Source: Alteromonas sp. ALT199 (GTDB lineage Bacteria > Pseudomonadota > Gammaproteobacteria > Enterobacterales > Alteromonadaceae). Taken from it: a stretch of DNA of 64,000 nt. Shown one piece after another: positions 48,592 to 55,015 of this stretch. The position numbers and the translations under genes were made by a program. The notes beneath the pieces are model-generated. The model was not told the origin of the DNA. It was given only the letters and a program-made list of their open reading frames with translations, and ran no database searches. The stretch spans positions 1 through 64,000 of the forward strand of contig NZ_JAHHDX010000124.1 of the NCBI RefSeq assembly GCF_018619335.1, read 5' to 3'. Each line of letters starts with the position of its first letter. Position 1 is the first letter of the stretch.

Positions 48592-48984
48592 TTATTGTAA
48601 TGTATCTTTACCCGAAACTAATGCCTTAGCGAGTAATTTATGGGTAAGCAATGATAAAAGCTCGGTTTCTTCTTCACTTCGCTCACCATCCACACCGGTA
48701 ATCGCCATAGCGACTTCTAACGTTTTTTCTGCATTAAACGATAGGTCGTTTTTGAGACTTTTTAAGAAAGTGACAGTATCGCCAGTGTCGATGGCCTTTC
48801 GAGCTTGATAAATAGTGTCGTTTAGAAATGCTTCGCGACAGATTGGGCTTTGCCAATCTAGCGATTCAACCATAGCATTCAGGTAGTCCTGTTCAGTCAA
48901 TGTTACCATGCCATCGACCTGATAAAGTAAAACTGAGAGTTTGATAAGGGCTTGATTAAAACTTTGTTGTTCTGATAATTGCAT
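48592..48984 (-). CDS. TerB-like protein
   Basis: 130-aa soluble helical protein. Two acidic motifs resemble TerB repeats: LYQVDGMVTLTEQDYLNAM and ITGVDGERSEEETELLSLL. The start at 48984 (MQLSEQQS) is preferred over an ATG 23 codons upstream that begins in a Cys-rich unconserved stretch. It differs in sequence from the TerB-like protein at 26098-26541. Function unknown. It lies just upstream of the hydrolase lipoprotein gene. Confidence 0.68.
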   Translation of the reverse strand: MQLSEQQSFNQALIKLSVLLYQVDGMVTLTEQDYLNAMVESLDWQSPICREAFLNDTIYQARKAIDTGDTVTFLKSLKNDLSFNAEKTLEVAMAITGVDGERSEEETELLSLLTHKLLAKALVSGKDTLQ

Positions 48985-49053
48985 AATACTCTTCCTCTTC
49001 GTACTGTACGCGGCAGTACCACAACATGCTCTGCATCCTAGCAGTAGCGACAA

Positions 49054-49446
49054 TTTTCGACGTCTACACTGAGGTATATAACATCGAGAGCATCAAAGCC
49101 GGTGAGTAGCTACATTAGGACCTGTAAGCATTTGATAAAGTTCCAAAGGCAACAGGGCTAATATAGACCGCCGAATTGACGGTAACATTACGCGACGGTG
49201 AAGGTTTTAGTTCACAATGTTAAATTAGTGTAAACACCTATTGCATTATAGGCGATTTTTGGCAGGTTCCAAGTGTCACACACCGCAAAAGATGGCTTTA
49301 ATTAATGAATATTAAGTTAATTGAAAAAGAGAGTTTTCATTTGAACTTTGTTAGAAGCGCTTAGCTTAAACAAAAGCCTGACGTATTCTTTGGTTACACG
49401 CGACAGGCTTAAAAAAGCAGGGGATGATAAAGATTAAGACATCACG
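49054..49446. other. Gap after the condensin operon
   Basis: 393 bases without a gene. It contains the probable operon terminator at 49366-49410 and half of a 12-bp hairpin spanning the end of the last condensin gene. The promoter of the TerB-like gene must lie toward 49054 but is not obvious. Confidence 0.45.
49366..49410 (-). terminator. Probable terminator of the condensin-like operon
   Basis: On the minus strand AAGCCTGTCG ... CGTCAGGCTT (10-bp stem with one mismatch, 17-base loop) is followed by TTGTTTA. It lies about 40 bases after the last gene. Confidence 0.65.
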
Positions 49447-49470
49447 CTATCGCAAGCCTAGCGTGATGTC
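49438..49470 (-). other. 12-bp perfect hairpin across the mksF-like stop codon
   Basis: GACATCACGCTA and TAGCGTGATGTC flank a 9-base loop. On the minus strand one arm encodes the last codons (DITL) and the other begins at the TAG stop. No T tract follows directly, so it may protect the mRNA 3' end or add to termination. Confidence 0.7.
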
Positions 49471-50664
49471 GTTTATATAGAAATTCCCCGTATAAACTTT
49501 ATCGTTACTACCGTGGGGTTCTAGTGCAAAAAACTGCTTATCTTGATCATCTAAGGCTTGGTAGCCGCCAATCACCTGATAAATCCATACTTCAGGATCG
49601 AAGCTTAAAGCGTGCTCTTCAAAGTAATCCAACGCTGTTTTAGGCTGACCAGAATCGATTACATCACAGAAATACGCTTCTACCGCTTGCTGCAAAGGGT
49701 CTTTTTCTAGCGACAAAGTTGATTGCTCGGTTATATCAATGTCAATAGCTTTAGTATCTTCGTGTGTCGACTGACGCTTATGAACATGGGTCAACGATGC
49801 CACAATACTTTGATAATCGGTCTCGTGCTCAACGTTATTCACATCAGGCGCCGCGTTAGCAATTATCGCGTCTGATTGATTAAACAAAACTGGTACGTTA
49901 GTAAGGTTGGCATAGTTGCCCGGCGCAAAATCAGGCTGCTGCTCCATGTGTAACAAAAAACCTTTAAGTAACCGTGTACGCCCCTGAAACTCTCTAAACC
50001 GACCAAGTAAGTCTAGCAAACGGGCTTGTACTACAGATAACTCCTGTGCAGCCTTGGCAAAGCGCTGCTGCAGCGACACCACCAGCAAGTGACGAAGTTC
50101 ACGGTTAGACCCAGCAAGCTCACTTAATTCATCAAACCGAAAGCACTCAAGCTGGGCTAGCAAGTCTGTTACCTGCCCCTGGGCTAACTCGTTTTCGCGA
50201 ATTTTAGCTTCAACCGACGACACATAACCAAATTCATTGTTAATACGACCGAACATCACACGCACGCTATTACTCAATGATTCTGAAAGCTGATACACGT
50301 GCTCTGTTAAATCGCCCATGTGGGCTGCTGCTTCATTATATTTGTTGTAATGAAGCGCTTCTTTATAATGTTCGGTCAGCGTTTTAAGGCTAGCGAGCGA
50401 CGCACCAATATTGGCATTGATAGTCCGATTGCGTTCGTCTTGTAGGCTACCCTCTAATAAAGCTCTCACCGCACTTTTTAGGCGTAGTTCACTTTGCGCT
50501 TCTGGGCGCCACAAAACACCTAATTGAACGAGCTGTTCTAATACCTTAGGGCTGTGGTCGCGCTCTTTTACCGAACCATTAACATACGCCTGCATAATAA
50601 GGTCGCTGTGACGACCCAATGCATTTAGTAGTTTAGTCCCCGCCTGAATTAAAACCTGGCTCAT
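49447..50664 (-). CDS. Kleisin-like subunit of an SMC complex (MksF/JetA-like)
   Basis: 405-aa protein with a predicted N-terminal winged-helix region (about residues 10-80, LLNALGRHSDLIMQAYVNGS ... RLKSAVRALLEG), a long helical middle (AAAHMGDLTEHVYQLSESLSNS) and an acidic linker about residues 275-325 before a C-terminal globular part. This is the layout of MukF/MksF kleisins, which bridge the SMC heads. Its ATG overlaps the stop of the preceding gene (ATGA). Assignment rests on layout, length and operon partners rather than on an invariant motif. Confidence 0.7.
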   Translation of the reverse strand: MSQVLIQAGTKLLNALGRHSDLIMQAYVNGSVKERDHSPKVLEQLVQLGVLWRPEAQSELRLKSAVRALLEGSLQDERNRTINANIGASLASLKTLTEHYKEALHYNKYNEAAAHMGDLTEHVYQLSESLSNSVRVMFGRINNEFGYVSSVEAKIRENELAQGQVTDLLAQLECFRFDELSELAGSNRELRHLLVVSLQQRFAKAAQELSVVQARLLDLLGRFREFQGRTRLLKGFLLHMEQQPDFAPGNYANLTNVPVLFNQSDAIIANAAPDVNNVEHETDYQSIVASLTHVHKRQSTHEDTKAIDIDITEQSTLSLEKDPLQQAVEAYFCDVIDSGQPKTALDYFEEHALSFDPEVWIYQVIGGYQALDDQDKQFFALEPHGSNDKVYTGNFYINDITLGLR

Positions 50665-51296
50665 ATCAAACTACCTTGCGAAATAGCGGCCTCCGCCTGC
50701 TCAGATAAACTCAGCGCTTCAGTTTCGTCGATAAAACGTAGCATTTCATAAAGGTGCTCAATTTTGCCTGTGCCCAAATATATTTGTTTATCCGGGTTAG
50801 GTTTAATCAAATAACCCATTTCGGTTAAGCGTTTAAAGACCTGCTTTAGCTGGCCATCTAAATTCACACTGGTAGAACCGAACATACGATAGCGCGAAAT
50901 TTTCTCCAGTTGCTCAGCATAGGCGGGCGTGTCTTCAATGGTCGTTTGCAGTTCGTTTAAACGAATAGCGCTGCCCATGGTTATTGGCATGTCAGACTCA
51001 TTGGCCTGTTGAACTAGTAATAACCACTCGACCAAAGGTACCAAGTTAGAAGCCGTATCTTGAAACTGCTGGGTTAGCACTTTGCGTTCAGTCTCACCAA
51101 TAGTAAGGAAGCTGGCAAAGAACACGTCGCCTTCAGCGGTTGTCGATAATGTACGATTTAATAGCGATAAGTGAGGTTCTAATTGAGCAGCGTTGTCTCT
51201 TGATTTAAGAAAACGCCACGCCTCTTCATCGGTCACCTGACAAATAAACGCGCCTTGTAGAAGTGCACTTAGTACACGGCCTTGTTCTGTCATCAT
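50661..51296 (-). CDS. MksE/JetB-like accessory subunit of an SMC complex
   Basis: 211-aa protein with tandem winged-helix character. The C-terminal KISRYRMFGSTSVNLDGQLKQVFKRLTEMGYLIKP ... YLGTGKIEHLYEMLRFI region resembles the MukE/MksE second wing, where such subunits bind kleisin and DNA. Two adjacent ATGs (51296, 51293). It overlaps both flanking genes by four bases (ATGA), so the three proteins are probably made in fixed ratio. Confidence 0.72.
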   Translation of the reverse strand: MMTEQGRVLSALLQGAFICQVTDEEAWRFLKSRDNAAQLEPHLSLLNRTLSTTAEGDVFFASFLTIGETERKVLTQQFQDTASNLVPLVEWLLLVQQANESDMPITMGSAIRLNELQTTIEDTPAYAEQLEKISRYRMFGSTSVNLDGQLKQVFKRLTEMGYLIKPNPDKQIYLGTGKIEHLYEMLRFIDETEALSLSEQAEAAISQGSLI

Positions 51297-54200
51297 GCTG
51301 ATGTCTCCTTGCCTGCTACGTCACTGTTCTTTTCAGCTTCTTTTTTTAGTTTTATTCGTGCGCCTATTGAACTTGTTTTCGGTTGAACCACCTGCAGCTG
51401 ACGGGTCACCTTATCTATCAAGTAGCGGTTTTCAAATAGCGTCAGTACTTCTGATTCTGGGTTAGGGAATGCGCCAACTACACTAATGTTATTGTTCTGA
51501 CAGGCTTCGAAAATTTTCTTCACGTTGTTTTGGTGAAGTGTACCTAACTCATCAATAGGCCAATGCACTATGGCCTCAGCATCACCACGCAAGAGACGGG
51601 TAAAAGCAAGTAAGAACTTACACAAAATAAGGTAGGCCATACCGTGGCTTGATGACTCATTAAGCTGGCGATCGGTACGAATAACAAGGTCACTATTACC
51701 TTCTCGCAGGTGCAGCTCAATATCAAGTAGCTTGCTAATACCGCCGGTGAGCGCTGCGCGGCCAAGAATATCCAATACTCGGCGCATACTCTGCCCATAC
51801 TCTTCTTCCGGCAGCTCGTTTGCTCCCTCTTCCATCCAGTGCTCGTAAAGCTTTCTGAATTGCTCAAGCTCTGGCCAAAATTCAAGTTCACTAATACGCG
51901 AGCGAATTTTAACGGCAGAATCGGATACACCATCAAGAGAAAGATCGCCGTCAACCTCTTGGGTAATACGGCGGCTTTGTGACACGATGCGTTTGTCGAT
52001 ATCGGCAAGGACAAAATAGTATTGTGAAAGATCAGCGCCGAATATACGGCCTTGTTCACGTAAGCCCTGCAGTTTTTGCGGAACAATCACGTTCAGAAGC
52101 TGTGCAAGATGCGACACCATGCGGCGGTGATCAAAACTCTTCACTCCATGTGCATTTAGCGTAGCGCATTCTTCACGAGCTCGCTCCCAGGTGTCAGATA
52201 GCCCTGTGCCCGCTTGCGCGGCAATAAGCTGGTCGAACCTTTCTACATAAGCACGAATATCGCTCATTAAGTTCTCACGCTCTTGAAGTTGGCTTTGTAC
52301 TTCAGAAATACGCTGACTAATACTTATATCATCGTGCTTAATTTCAGCAGTTTCATCACCGGCTTGAAGAGTAAGCTTAGCAAGGGACTTGCTTAAGGTT
52401 TTGACCTGTTCTAAGTGCTCACTGGCGGTTTTTAAGGTAGATTCAAGCTGCGCGTGCTGCTCTTGAAGTTGCTCGCGGCTAGCTTTATAGGTTGCTTGTT
52501 TGCTTGCCAAGTTACGCTCAGATTCACCCAATAACTTGCGCGACTTTGACAACCCTTCCTGCCATATCACTTTTTGCTTGGTAAACACATTGGTGTACCA
52601 ACGTTCATAGTCAGCCACTTTGTGACGGTGTGTTTCAGTGCGCGTAATGTCGTCTTTAAGCTTATTAATTTGCTTTTTAAGCTGGCCTATTTCGTCAACA
52701 TCAACACCGCGATTGCTTAATTCGCTTTCCAGCCAATCCTGCATATCTTTGCGGTCTTGAGCTGCATTATCTTTCGCCTTACGCATATCACTATCAAGCT
52801 GAGATATACGTGCTTCACTATCAGCAATAAGTTGCTGCCAGTGGAATTTGTGCTCGGTTTCGGCTTCGCGTTGCTGATCTTTAATTTCGTCACGACTAAG
52901 CTCAAACTGCGCTTTCGCATGCTTTTGCGACTGTTGATTGGCTTCAAGCTTTGTTTTGGCTTTTTGCTTACGTGAAGAAAGCGCTTGTTGGTATTCGCTA
53001 AGCACCGTATCACGGTCTTGCTGTGCTCGTTTTCGACTGGCTTCCGCACTTTTAACGGCGTTATCTTTTTGGGTAACCACAAGCTCGGCGTTACGCACGT
53101 CTTCGTTTGCTTTCGCTAGGCGCTGTTCGCATTCGTTTTGCGCGGCAAGGGCTGCAGCCTGACGAATTTCAGCTTCCTGCAATTTCTGTTTAAGGGCTTG
53201 CTCGGTAAAGGCGTAGTCTGGAGTATCGAGCTCAGTAAGCGCTAACTTAACGCCCATAAAAGTATCGCTGGCGCTTTGTGAGTTTTCCGCCATAGCAGGC
53301 GCTAAATCCGTGCGTTCGAGCAGCTCCGGGCGAATAACTTTACCTAAGGATAATTCCCAGTCGTCCACATTGGCGCGCAAGAACTCAAGTAACGATCCTT
53401 CCCCTGGGTAAAGTAGCCCATTAATTTTGTTAACCGCTTTTTCTTCCTGGTGAAACGCGTTACGTGCTTTGTCTAACGCATTGGAACATCCTTTGCGAAA
53501 CTCTACTGATTTACTGTGTGCTTGTTGCGCTTGTCGCAATTCACCACGCGCAGCATCTTCATTTATAGACGCTTCTTTTATTGCTGCGTCTAAAATATCT
53601 AGCTGAGATTGCTCAAACTCGTTATAGCCTGCGTTGCTGAGTGACGCTTTAAGCTCAGCTTCAGCTACTTTTAGTTCATTTAAACTATTCTGATAATCAT
53701 TCTGAAGAGTGCTTAGCTGGCTATTATAGTCGCTCTGAATTCGACTTAACGCTTCACGCTCACTCTGCTGTTGCTCAGCTTTGTTTTCTGCAGCTTCTTG
53801 TCGAGCAGCTGACATCTCTTCTAAGGTAATTGAAAGCTTTTCACCTAGCTCAGCTAAGCGCTTGTTGTAGGCCGACTCAATGTCTTGGTGCTTTTCAGTA
53901 AGCAGTACGTAACGACTATCGGCCATGGCTTTTTCATTCTGCCATTGCGCTAGATTTGCAACGTCCTCTTTAAGCTGCTCAATATTTTCGTCTTGCCACT
54001 TATCGAATTCACGCTCTACCGTATCCAGTTCGCTAGTGAACTTCTCAACATCGGCGCGAGCAGATGAAATAACTTGGTTTAGATGGTCTCGGGTGTCGCC
54101 CCACTCACTGTCAGTTTGCTTGCGCTGAAAGCTATTTTCATCAAGTTCATTCTTTGTGGTCTCAACCCGAGCGGCTAAGTAGGTCTTATCAAGCTCAAAG

Positions 54201-55015
54201 CTATGCTTAAGGTTAGCAAGCACTTGCTCTGTACTTGTTAATGCCATATCGGCTTGTTCGAGCTTAGAAAACTCAGGACGAATTTTGTCGAATTGCTTGA
54301 TTAGGTGGCATTCTTTAATCCAGTCATCAACCCGATGGCGGCTAAGGCCTGAAGTAGGTGGGGTTACCCCATCTTCTTCTAAAATAGCGGCAATCATGGC
54401 TTTGATGGTTTCCATCTTACCTTCTTTAGAGTGCACCGCTTTAGCCAACTTTTCGATGTGGCGCATATGCTTTGAAGGCTCGCATAAACTAAAGATTTTG
54501 GCATAGCCTAAAAGTTCGCGCGCATTGTTACTCTGGTTGAGTACACCGTGATCGTTTTGAATGATTGCACGAAAATCTTTGGTATTTAATAGGCTGGTTA
54601 CTAATATGTTATTGCGTTTCATAGCACGTGCAAGCTCGGCGCTGCTCACACTGGCGTGCTTGCCGTTCTTTTGCTCTATTAGATAATCACTAATTTCAAA
54701 TGGCTTGCCGACTAAACGATAGTTAACGCCAGTTCCGTTAGAGCTCAACACTGCTTGGCACAGATCGCCTTCAGCACGCGTATATTCATAAATAATAAAG
54801 CTAGATAAGCGCGGTAAGTACCAGCGTTCAAAGCTGTCACGGGTTGCCGGTACCACGCGACTGGGGTATTCACCGTAAAACACGGGGATCAGTCGCTGAA
54901 GTGTGGTTTTACCCGATGCATTGGTACCACAAATATTGGTGTGTCCATCAAGCTTTAGCTCGACAACGCCTGGTAAATGCGTGTCGATAAGAATAATACG
55001 TTTTAAGCCTGCCAT
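51293..55015 (-). CDS. SMC-like ATPase of a three-subunit condensin (MksB/JetC-like, DUF3584-like)
   Basis: 1240-aa ATPase. Walker A is GTNASGKTTLQR at residues 30-41, then a head subdomain to about 235. Coiled coil runs about 240-535, a compact hinge-like segment lies near 535-605 (LLYPGEGSLLEFLRANVDDW), and return coiled coil continues to about 960. The C-terminal head has signature NESSSHGMAYLIL (about 1119) and Walker B IVHWPIDEL. This is the MukB/MksB/JetC/Rad50-like architecture. AGGA precedes the ATG. Being first, not last, in its operon is unlike classic mksFEB order. I see no nuclease domain. Confidence 0.85.
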   Translation of the reverse strand: MAGLKRIILIDTHLPGVVELKLDGHTNICGTNASGKTTLQRLIPVFYGEYPSRVVPATRDSFERWYLPRLSSFIIYEYTRAEGDLCQAVLSSNGTGVNYRLVGKPFEISDYLIEQKNGKHASVSSAELARAMKRNNILVTSLLNTKDFRAIIQNDHGVLNQSNNARELLGYAKIFSLCEPSKHMRHIEKLAKAVHSKEGKMETIKAMIAAILEEDGVTPPTSGLSRHRVDDWIKECHLIKQFDKIRPEFSKLEQADMALTSTEQVLANLKHSFELDKTYLAARVETTKNELDENSFQRKQTDSEWGDTRDHLNQVISSARADVEKFTSELDTVEREFDKWQDENIEQLKEDVANLAQWQNEKAMADSRYVLLTEKHQDIESAYNKRLAELGEKLSITLEEMSAARQEAAENKAEQQQSEREALSRIQSDYNSQLSTLQNDYQNSLNELKVAEAELKASLSNAGYNEFEQSQLDILDAAIKEASINEDAARGELRQAQQAHSKSVEFRKGCSNALDKARNAFHQEEKAVNKINGLLYPGEGSLLEFLRANVDDWELSLGKVIRPELLERTDLAPAMAENSQSASDTFMGVKLALTELDTPDYAFTEQALKQKLQEAEIRQAAALAAQNECEQRLAKANEDVRNAELVVTQKDNAVKSAEASRKRAQQDRDTVLSEYQQALSSRKQKAKTKLEANQQSQKHAKAQFELSRDEIKDQQREAETEHKFHWQQLIADSEARISQLDSDMRKAKDNAAQDRKDMQDWLESELSNRGVDVDEIGQLKKQINKLKDDITRTETHRHKVADYERWYTNVFTKQKVIWQEGLSKSRKLLGESERNLASKQATYKASREQLQEQHAQLESTLKTASEHLEQVKTLSKSLAKLTLQAGDETAEIKHDDISISQRISEVQSQLQERENLMSDIRAYVERFDQLIAAQAGTGLSDTWERAREECATLNAHGVKSFDHRRMVSHLAQLLNVIVPQKLQGLREQGRIFGADLSQYYFVLADIDKRIVSQSRRITQEVDGDLSLDGVSDSAVKIRSRISELEFWPELEQFRKLYEHWMEEGANELPEEEYGQSMRRVLDILGRAALTGGISKLLDIELHLREGNSDLVIRTDRQLNESSSHGMAYLILCKFLLAFTRLLRGDAEAIVHWPIDELGTLHQNNVKKIFEACQNNNISVVGAFPNPESEVLTLFENRYLIDKVTRQLQVVQPKTSSIGARIKLKKEAEKNSDVAGKETSA

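What the first reader, a model, noticed from the sequence alone, without database searches (positions are those of the whole stretch)
49366..55015. Stand-alone SMC/condensin operon (MksBEF/Wadjet class) with SMC gene first and no nuclease gene
Three genes overlap by 4-bp ATGA junctions: a 1240-aa SMC-like ATPase, a 211-aa winged-helix MksE-like protein and a 405-aa kleisin-like protein, followed by a terminator. Established knowledge: MukBEF/MksBEF complexes shape chromosomes, and Wadjet (JetABCD) adds a Toprim nuclease that cuts plasmids. Here the order is SMC-E-F, not the usual F-E-SMC, and neither side holds a JetD/MksG-like gene (lipoprotein gene upstream, TerB-like gene downstream). That suggests a nuclease-free or trans-acting variant: chromosome maintenance, plasmid control with a partner encoded elsewhere, or an undescribed class.
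Basis: partly seen in the sequence, partly recalled or inferred. Interest (0 to 1): 0.75.

Follow-up and report, generated by a model that had tools for sequence, protein, structure and literature searches.

The report
Condensin that lost its nuclease gene
In the sea bacterium Alteromonas a DNA-looping protein machine of the kind that usually destroys plasmids has lost its DNA-cutting partner yet is kept by every species examined, which suggests that a defence system was turned into a routine chromosome tool.

Summary
The operon is real, on the minus strand: SMC ATPase (1240 aa), MksE/JetB-like KITE protein (211 aa), MukF-like kleisin (405 aa). The genome has SMC-ScpAB, no MukB match, and no match to JetD_C or DUF7281. 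Relatives reveal the fourth gene: a Toprim protein, Pfam DUF7281, JetD/MksG-like, directly after the kleisin gene. Outside the family the SMC is rare (6 of 366 genomes at E 1e-30), with DUF7281 adjacent in 5 of 6. Inside the family 18 of 71 carriers have it beside the operon; in Alteromonas the SMC is in 59 of 59 genomes, the nuclease beside it in 3. Alteromonas ponticola keeps the two ends of a nuclease gene whose middle is deleted. Nuclease and kleisin co-diverge. The nuclease-free operon has dN/dS near 0.02. Best reading: an SMC-first Wadjet/MksBEFG-like system whose nuclease was lost repeatedly and whose motor was kept as a core condensin beside SMC-ScpAB. Loss of the nuclease is well supported; the chromosomal function is inferred. 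It is a natural case of the defence-to-housekeeping change that a 2023 review proposes for MukBEF.

The parts
51293..55015 (-). SMC-like ATPase, 1240 aa (MksB/JetC-like, DUF3584)
   Evidence: Pfam PF12128 1057 bits over residues 8-1202; Walker A, signature and Walker B residues invariant or nearly so in 41 sequences
54902..54928 (-). Walker A (residues 30-38, GTNASGKTT)
   Evidence: read; G30, N32, G35, K36, T37 invariant; the motif name is recalled
51641..51655 (-). ABC signature region (residues 1121-1125, SSSHG)
   Evidence: S1122, S1123, G1125 invariant; the assignment as signature is recalled
51548..51565 (-). Walker B with catalytic Glu (residues 1151-1156, HWPIDE)
   Evidence: D1155, E1156 invariant; the motif name is recalled
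50661..51296 (-). MksE/JetB-like KITE protein, 211 aa
   Evidence: Pfam MksE over its cut-off; MksE matched by 35 of the 40 members of the alignment, the window's own included, at E 0.01; model pLDDT 89.5; Foldseek best JetB 8as8_C E 3.8e-5, then MukE 7nyw_E 6.5e-4; VIA Z 9.4, rmsd 4.6 over 157 residues to 8dk1_E
49447..50664 (-). MukF/JetA-like kleisin, 405 aa
   Evidence: model pLDDT 77, pTM 0.45; Foldseek best MukF 7nz2_C1 E 5.4e-4 and 9gm7_C 6.0e-4, then JetABC chains; VIA Z 12.8 to MukF 3rpu_B with rmsd 13.7 over 250 residues
49438..49470 (-). 12-bp hairpin with U-rich tail at the kleisin stop codon, likely terminator
   Evidence: fold z -4.36; sequence; not listed by the terminator scan
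49054..49446 (.). intergenic stretch where relatives carry the nuclease gene (DUF7281); empty here
   Evidence: in L130 and L154 the gene lies between kleisin and TerB-like gene; no trace in the window
48592..49053 (-). TerB-like gene, conserved neighbour; membership in the system unproven
   Evidence: Pfam TerB 23.6 bits, cut-off 24.4; same place and strand in 39 of 103 loci, some of them redundant

Best explanation
A nuclease-free SMC-KITE-kleisin complex descended from a four-gene, SMC-first, Wadjet/MksBEFG-like system. Shown: the SMC keeps its ATPase motifs; E and F have MukE/JetB-like and MukF-like predicted folds; many relatives have a Toprim protein (DUF7281) as fourth gene in the same place; sister species differ in having it, in one species by a visible internal deletion; the three motor genes stay intact, universal in the genus and under strong purifying selection. 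Inferred: that loss was repeated and the usual direction; that the kleisin links two SMC dimers and the ATPase extrudes DNA loops as in MukBEF and JetABC; and that without the cutting subunit the motor now organises or helps to segregate the chromosome beside SMC-ScpAB. Where it loads and what stops it is unknown.
For: Motor class. Whole genome: ScpA yes, MukB no, JetD_C no, DUF7281 no. Core gene: 59 of 59 Alteromonas genomes; in one, G166, it is split. Clade A orthologues track Ffh identity (Spearman 0.82, n = 42; on values; 44 members less the window's own genome and G125, whose Ffh match is fragmented). Fourth gene DUF7281 next to the kleisin gene; 11 columns invariant in 34 of 34 sequences (some redundant), with the E and DxD of the Toprim motif among them; it also matches JetD_C, over its cut-off in 3 of the 7 scanned, and weakly MksG 8b7f (E 0.022). 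Loss: A. ponticola L125 keeps both ends of the gene, about 630 alignment columns missing, between intact kleisin and TerB genes (tblastn E 1.5e-7 for the first end; the HMM sees both ends only at E 0.1 and 3.8). Absence with homologous flanks in L050 against L049 and in L136 and L134 against L137. Co-divergence of G and F: r 0.88, 0 of 2000 permutations (24 rows); within clade A r 0.70, 11 of 40320; within clade B r 0.95, 0 of 20000. Purifying selection: window against L064, L096 and L097, dN/dS SMC 0.019-0.020, E 0.006-0.008, F 0.019-0.025, Ffh 0.008-0.012.
Against: No functional data. One-way (Dollo) counting needs 12 losses in clade A and 17 in the tree of 79 rows, while the unordered minimum is 8 changes, so part of the pattern could be regain. 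With one representative per genus in clade A, G identities are nearly flat (0.27-0.38), so deep co-inheritance is not resolved. One remnant among 107 nuclease-free downstream stretches. Low dN/dS is not special here: the neighbouring AcrB-type gene has 0.017-0.018 against L096 and L097. Clade B (25 of 71 carriers) has 32-36% identity (40% for one fragment), although 8 of the 25 genomes have Ffh at 83-85%, as in clade A, so operons were exchanged or are old duplicates. Seven of 12 class-wide DUF7281 genomes have no SMC match at the threshold used, so DUF7281 is not tied to this SMC alone.
Confidence: 0.6

Rival explanations
1. It is still an anti-plasmid system: the complex recognises circular DNA and either recruits an unrelated nuclease encoded elsewhere or silences or dislodges plasmids without cutting.
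For: Relatives with the fourth gene look like Wadjet; plasmid-borne relatives exist; the ATPase motifs are intact. Three carriers of the operon (G113, G124, G146) have a strong JetD_C protein elsewhere in the genome, in principle a partner in trans.
Against: No JetD_C or DUF7281 in the window's genome. In G113 and G146 the distant JetD lies directly behind a type I JetC, so it belongs to a separate Wadjet operon; for G124 the gene in front matched no PADLOC model and this is open. Defence genes are usually patchy (recalled); here presence is 59 of 59 and dN/dS about 0.02. Unrelated Toprim/OLD nucleases were not searched for, so a trans partner is not excluded.
Confidence: 0.24
2. The nuclease-free condensin is the older state in this family, and DUF7281 was added several times at the same place.
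For: Most clade A tips lack the gene; parsimony without direction needs 8 changes, one-way loss needs 17; deep clade A G identities are flat.
Against: The deletion remnant in A. ponticola; co-divergence of G with F within groups; the same position after the kleisin gene in the plasmid relatives, clade B, G112/G135 and clade A.
Confidence: 0.13
3. A decaying remnant of a defence system without present function.
For: One of 59 Alteromonas genomes (G166) has a split SMC gene.
Against: Open frames of 1230 aa or more in the other 58 of 59 (four rows list one stop inside the match, with open frames of 1234-1242 aa) and dN/dS near 0.02.
Confidence: 0.03

Closest known systems
MksBEFG / Wadjet (JetABCD) of Corynebacterium glutamicum, Pseudomonas and E. 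coli GF4-3
   Same: SMC + KITE + kleisin operon; in relatives a Toprim protein with JetD_C similarity as fourth gene; E folds like JetB.
   Different: Gene order SMC-E-F(-G) instead of mksFEBG (order from PMC10123090, passages read); PADLOC JetA/JetB models give no hit and JetC/JetD only marginal hits in the proteins scanned, while type I JetC and JetD of relatives score 359-545 bits; no SMC-complex relative in the PDB by sequence for E and F (E-value limit 1) or SMC (limit 1e-3); no nuclease in the window.
MksBEF of Pseudomonas aeruginosa
   Same: A MksBEF condensin living beside SMC with a role in chromosome segregation (PMC7485682: start of abstract in the listing, passages). That its operon has no nuclease is recalled; the main text does not mention MksG.
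   Different: Direct sequence comparison with its MksB was not made; gene order F-E-B there is recalled.
MukBEF of E. coli
   Same: Nuclease-free SMC-KITE-kleisin complex; kleisin model nearest to MukF.
   Different: The MukB Pfam model does not match this genome; E. coli has no ScpA match (control), whereas here both condensins coexist.

Membership tests
MksBEF condensin | SMC-like ATPase with complete ATPase motifs | tested here: met
   DUF3584 1057 bits; invariant residues
MksBEF condensin | MksE-type KITE protein | tested here: met
   Pfam MksE over cut-off; 35 of 40 alignment members match at E 0.01; fold
MksBEF condensin | MksF/MukF-type kleisin | tested here: met
   By fold only: Foldseek best two hits MukF (E 5.4e-4, 6.0e-4), VIA Z 12.8 with rmsd 13.7, a Z close to that of unrelated helical proteins in the same list (12.6); no Pfam model over cut-off
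MksBEF condensin | gene order F-E-B | tested here: not met
   SMC-E-F in 41 of 41 loci
Wadjet JetABCD types I-III | JetD/MksG Toprim nuclease in the operon | tested here: not met
   not found in window or genome; DUF7281 in relatives
Wadjet JetABCD types I-III | match to type-specific JetA/B/C models | tested here: not met
   best JetC 21.8 bits, no JetA or JetB hit; positive control: type I JetC/JetD fragments of family members score 359-545 bits
Wadjet JetABCD types I-III | restriction of circular plasmids | not testable with these tools
   needs experiment
MukBEF | MukB N-terminal Pfam model | tested here: not met
   no match in the genome
SMC-ScpAB | canonical SMC with ScpA | tested here: not met
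   NCBIfam SMC_prok_B 16.3 bits against cut-off 567; the genome has a separate ScpA

The most novel reading that the evidence does not exclude
SMC-first operons with a DUF7281 nuclease are a separate, uncatalogued branch of Wadjet-like systems, and in Alteromonas and its relatives their motor was disarmed repeatedly and fixed as a core chromosome condensin: a recent replay of the route proposed for MukBEF and MksBEF, with intact, half-deleted and nuclease-free stages in sister species.
Probability: 0.5. Interest if true: 0.85.

Novelty: new variant of a known kind. Interest (0 to 1): 0.66.

Why it matters
[quoted passage not shown] Here sister species with and without the nuclease gene at the same locus (A. 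aquimaris and A. ponticola; Bowmanella denitrificans and B. pacifica) make that change directly testable: what must alter in an SMC motor when it stops being a weapon. It also gives DUF7281, named in no paper of the library searched, a likely role as JetD-like subunit.

Tried and rejected
RecN/SbcC-type repair ATPase: rejected, DUF3584 over its full length against 17.4 bits for Rad50. SMC-ScpAB or MukB: rejected. Nuclease in trans: JetD_C and DUF7281 not found in the genome. Among the other carriers in the family sample, G113, G124 and G146 have a strong JetD_C protein elsewhere: in G113 and G146 it stands behind a type I JetC, a separate Wadjet; in G124 the gene in front matched no PADLOC model at E 0.001. 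G023 has a weak JetD_C-like protein on another contig (26.1 bits, cut-off 22; 21.5 bits to DUF7281, under that cut-off); similar proteins occur in genomes without this SMC, so it was not counted as partner. Remnant of the nuclease in the window's own gap: none by tblastn or HMM. PDB sequence searches with the E, F and SMC profiles gave no SMC-complex relative; the one SMC hit was a designed coiled coil. Viral contigs: 56 pattern matches, none confirmed. Promoter scan: 7 sites against 11.3 expected, uninformative. In one search the AcrB row of L064 is a misalignment (8% identity) and was not used. Papers: MksB + Shewanella 0, MksBEF + Alteromonas 0, DUF7281 0, Wadjet + Alteromonas 2, listing only, DUF3584 + condensin 1, listing only. 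Passages of PMC10512200 were also seen. MksF and JetA are not excluded by the structure lists.
Full report
What is there. The operon lies on the minus strand: SMC 51293-55015, E 50661-51296, F 49447-50664, with two 4-bp overlaps. The SMC matches Pfam DUF3584 along its length (1057 bits), E matches MksE (29.1 bits, cut-off 27), F has no Pfam family over its cut-off. A 12-bp hairpin with U-rich tail sits on the F stop codon. Predicted models: E (pLDDT 89.5) is nearest to JetB 8as8_C (Foldseek E 3.8e-5) and MukE (VIA Z 9.4, rmsd 4.6 over 157 residues). F (pLDDT 77) is nearest to MukF (7nz2_C1, E 5.4e-4; VIA Z 12.8, rmsd 13.7); in that second list unrelated helical proteins score almost as high (12.6), so the Foldseek order and the operon context carry the call.

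Whose genome. The SMC is 97% identical to those of Alteromonas portus and A. abrolhosensis. The genome (4.63 Mb, 178 contigs, 100% complete by the tool) has ScpA, no MukB match, no JetD_C match and no DUF7281 match.

A core gene. All 59 Alteromonas genomes searched hold the SMC gene; in one (G166) it is split, and one (G198) has a second, 25% identical copy. In the family 71 of 147 genomes hold it (E 1e-10): clade A, 44 genomes at 44% identity or more; clade B, 25 at 32-36% (40% for one fragment); two (G112, G135) at 23%. In clade A identity follows that of Ffh (Spearman 0.82, n = 42; left out: the window's own genome and G125, whose Ffh match is fragmented). Clade B does not: 8 of its 25 genomes have Ffh at 83-85%, so it reflects exchange or an old duplicate. 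Window against three close relatives (L064, L096, L097): dN/dS 0.019-0.020 for SMC, 0.006-0.008 for E, 0.019-0.025 for F, 0.008-0.012 for Ffh, 0.048-0.071 for the downstream hydrolase; the AcrB-type neighbour is as constrained (0.017-0.018; its L064 row is a misalignment). A fourth relative, L123, agrees, with dS of 0.8 to 2.6 where it could be computed.

The missing fourth gene. In many relatives an ORF of about 274-305 aa follows F directly. It is Pfam DUF7281 (7 of 7 scanned), with JetD_C over its cut-off in 3 of the 7, MksG 8b7f as weak PDB match (E 0.022) and PADLOC JetD up to 27.5 bits. K, E-N, Y-R-G, D.D..G and two Q are invariant in 34 of 34 copies (some redundant); the E and DxD are those expected of a Toprim nuclease (recalled; acidic Toprim residues of JetD are described in PMC10586767). 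In the family DUF7281 lies beside the operon in 18 of 71 carriers: 3 of 44 in clade A, 13 of 25 in clade B, 2 of 2 in the rest (my count from the coordinates; nine further genomes have matches elsewhere, seven of them under the cut-off, and only G023 of the nine carries the SMC). In Alteromonas it lies beside the core operon in 3 of 59; a fourth match, G198, belongs to the second copy. Outside the family the SMC is found in 6 of 366 genomes, 5 of 6 with DUF7281 adjacent (Fisher p 0.008 against 18 of 71). That search used a stricter limit (E 1e-30, two candidates scored per genome), so 6 is a lower bound; and 7 of the 12 class-wide genomes with DUF7281 have no SMC match at that limit. Two plasmid relatives at 23% identity that I opened (Marinobacter pMAQU02, Acinetobacter johnsonii) are four-gene operons in the same order; a third plasmid hit opened is only a fragment. 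In all, 41 plasmid records matched, 12 over at least 80% of the SMC; the others were not opened.

Control. Canonical type I Wadjet also exists in this family: the strong JetD_C proteins of G113 and G146 stand behind a JetC that PADLOC recognises at 368 and 359 bits from 280 and 243 residues alone, with JetD at 388 and 545 bits. So the models work, and the SMC-first operon (best JetC 21.8 bits) is a different branch. G124's JetD (444 bits) has no recognised gene in front.

Loss, not only absence. In A. aquimaris (L154) and Alteromonas sp. ASW11-130 (L130) the order is SMC-E-F-nuclease-TerB. In A. ponticola (L125) SMC, E and F are intact, but of the nuclease gene only the two ends remain, with about 630 alignment columns missing, and TerB follows. 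L050 against L049, and L136 and L134 (Bowmanella) against L137, share the DNA further downstream but lack the gene. Of 107 downstream stretches without the gene (some redundant), only L125 shows a remnant, so most losses are old or clean, or the gene was never there. The window has none.

Polarity. The SMC tree (79 rows, after near-duplicates among 103 loci were dropped) broadly follows taxonomy, with 18 of 76 inner branches open; presence of the nuclease changes at least 8 times. One-way loss needs 17 events, 12 in clade A. For vertical history: G and F identities correlate (r 0.88, 24 rows, 0 of 2000 permutations; clade A alone 0.70, 11 of 40320; clade B alone 0.95, 0 of 20000). Against a firm claim at depth: with one row per genus in clade A, G identities are almost flat, and the G tree is open at its base. 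G evolves far faster than F: 65% against 94% between L154 and L130.

How it most likely works. From MukBEF and JetABC (PMC10586767, section 7 and passages): SMC dimers with KITE and kleisin pair through the kleisin and extrude DNA loops; in Wadjet the finished loop of a small circle triggers JetD. Without JetD the same motor can only shape DNA. The main rival is plasmid control by a partner not yet known (0.24).

Relation to known systems. It works like MksBEF; the gene order differs from mksFEBG (PMC10123090, passages), and PADLOC's JetA and JetB models do not match while JetC does so only marginally. I call it a new variant of a known kind. MksBEF of P. aeruginosa shows that a MksBEF can serve chromosome segregation beside SMC (PMC7485682, start of abstract and passages). 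The new element is the traceable loss of the nuclease with fixation of the motor. I found no paper on it in the listings; subscription papers are mostly not held.

Noticed in passing
window 48592-49053 (-): A TerB-like gene follows the operon on the same strand in 39 of 103 loci, with and without the nuclease gene between; it may be a partner or only old synteny.
   Followed up: partly
genome G166, C1:1374318-1378036: The SMC gene is split in this one Alteromonas genome of 59; frameshift or assembly error not told apart.
   Followed up: no
genome G198, contig C112; locus L179: A second, 25% identical SMC with its own adjacent DUF7281 gene in an Alteromonas, beside the core nuclease-free copy: an accessory armed system and a disarmed core one in one cell.
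   Followed up: partly
genus g38 (G038, G078, G109, G135): Four of four genomes sampled from this genus lack a ScpA match, and none of them is among the three weak MukB matches; which condensin they use was not determined.
   Followed up: no
L045 downstream of F: A repeat of about 85-90 bp near the junction recurs, also inverted, about 3.5 kb away; L049 has one related copy at its nuclease/flank junction.
   Followed up: no
L035 (genome G124): A strong JetD1 protein (444 bits) whose upstream neighbour of 277 aa matches no PADLOC model at E 0.001; its own SMC partner was not identified.
   Followed up: partly
L176, L177 (plasmids): Conjugative or mobilizable plasmids of Marinobacter and Acinetobacter carry four-gene SMC-E-F-Toprim operons, possibly inter-plasmid competition.
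   Followed up: partly
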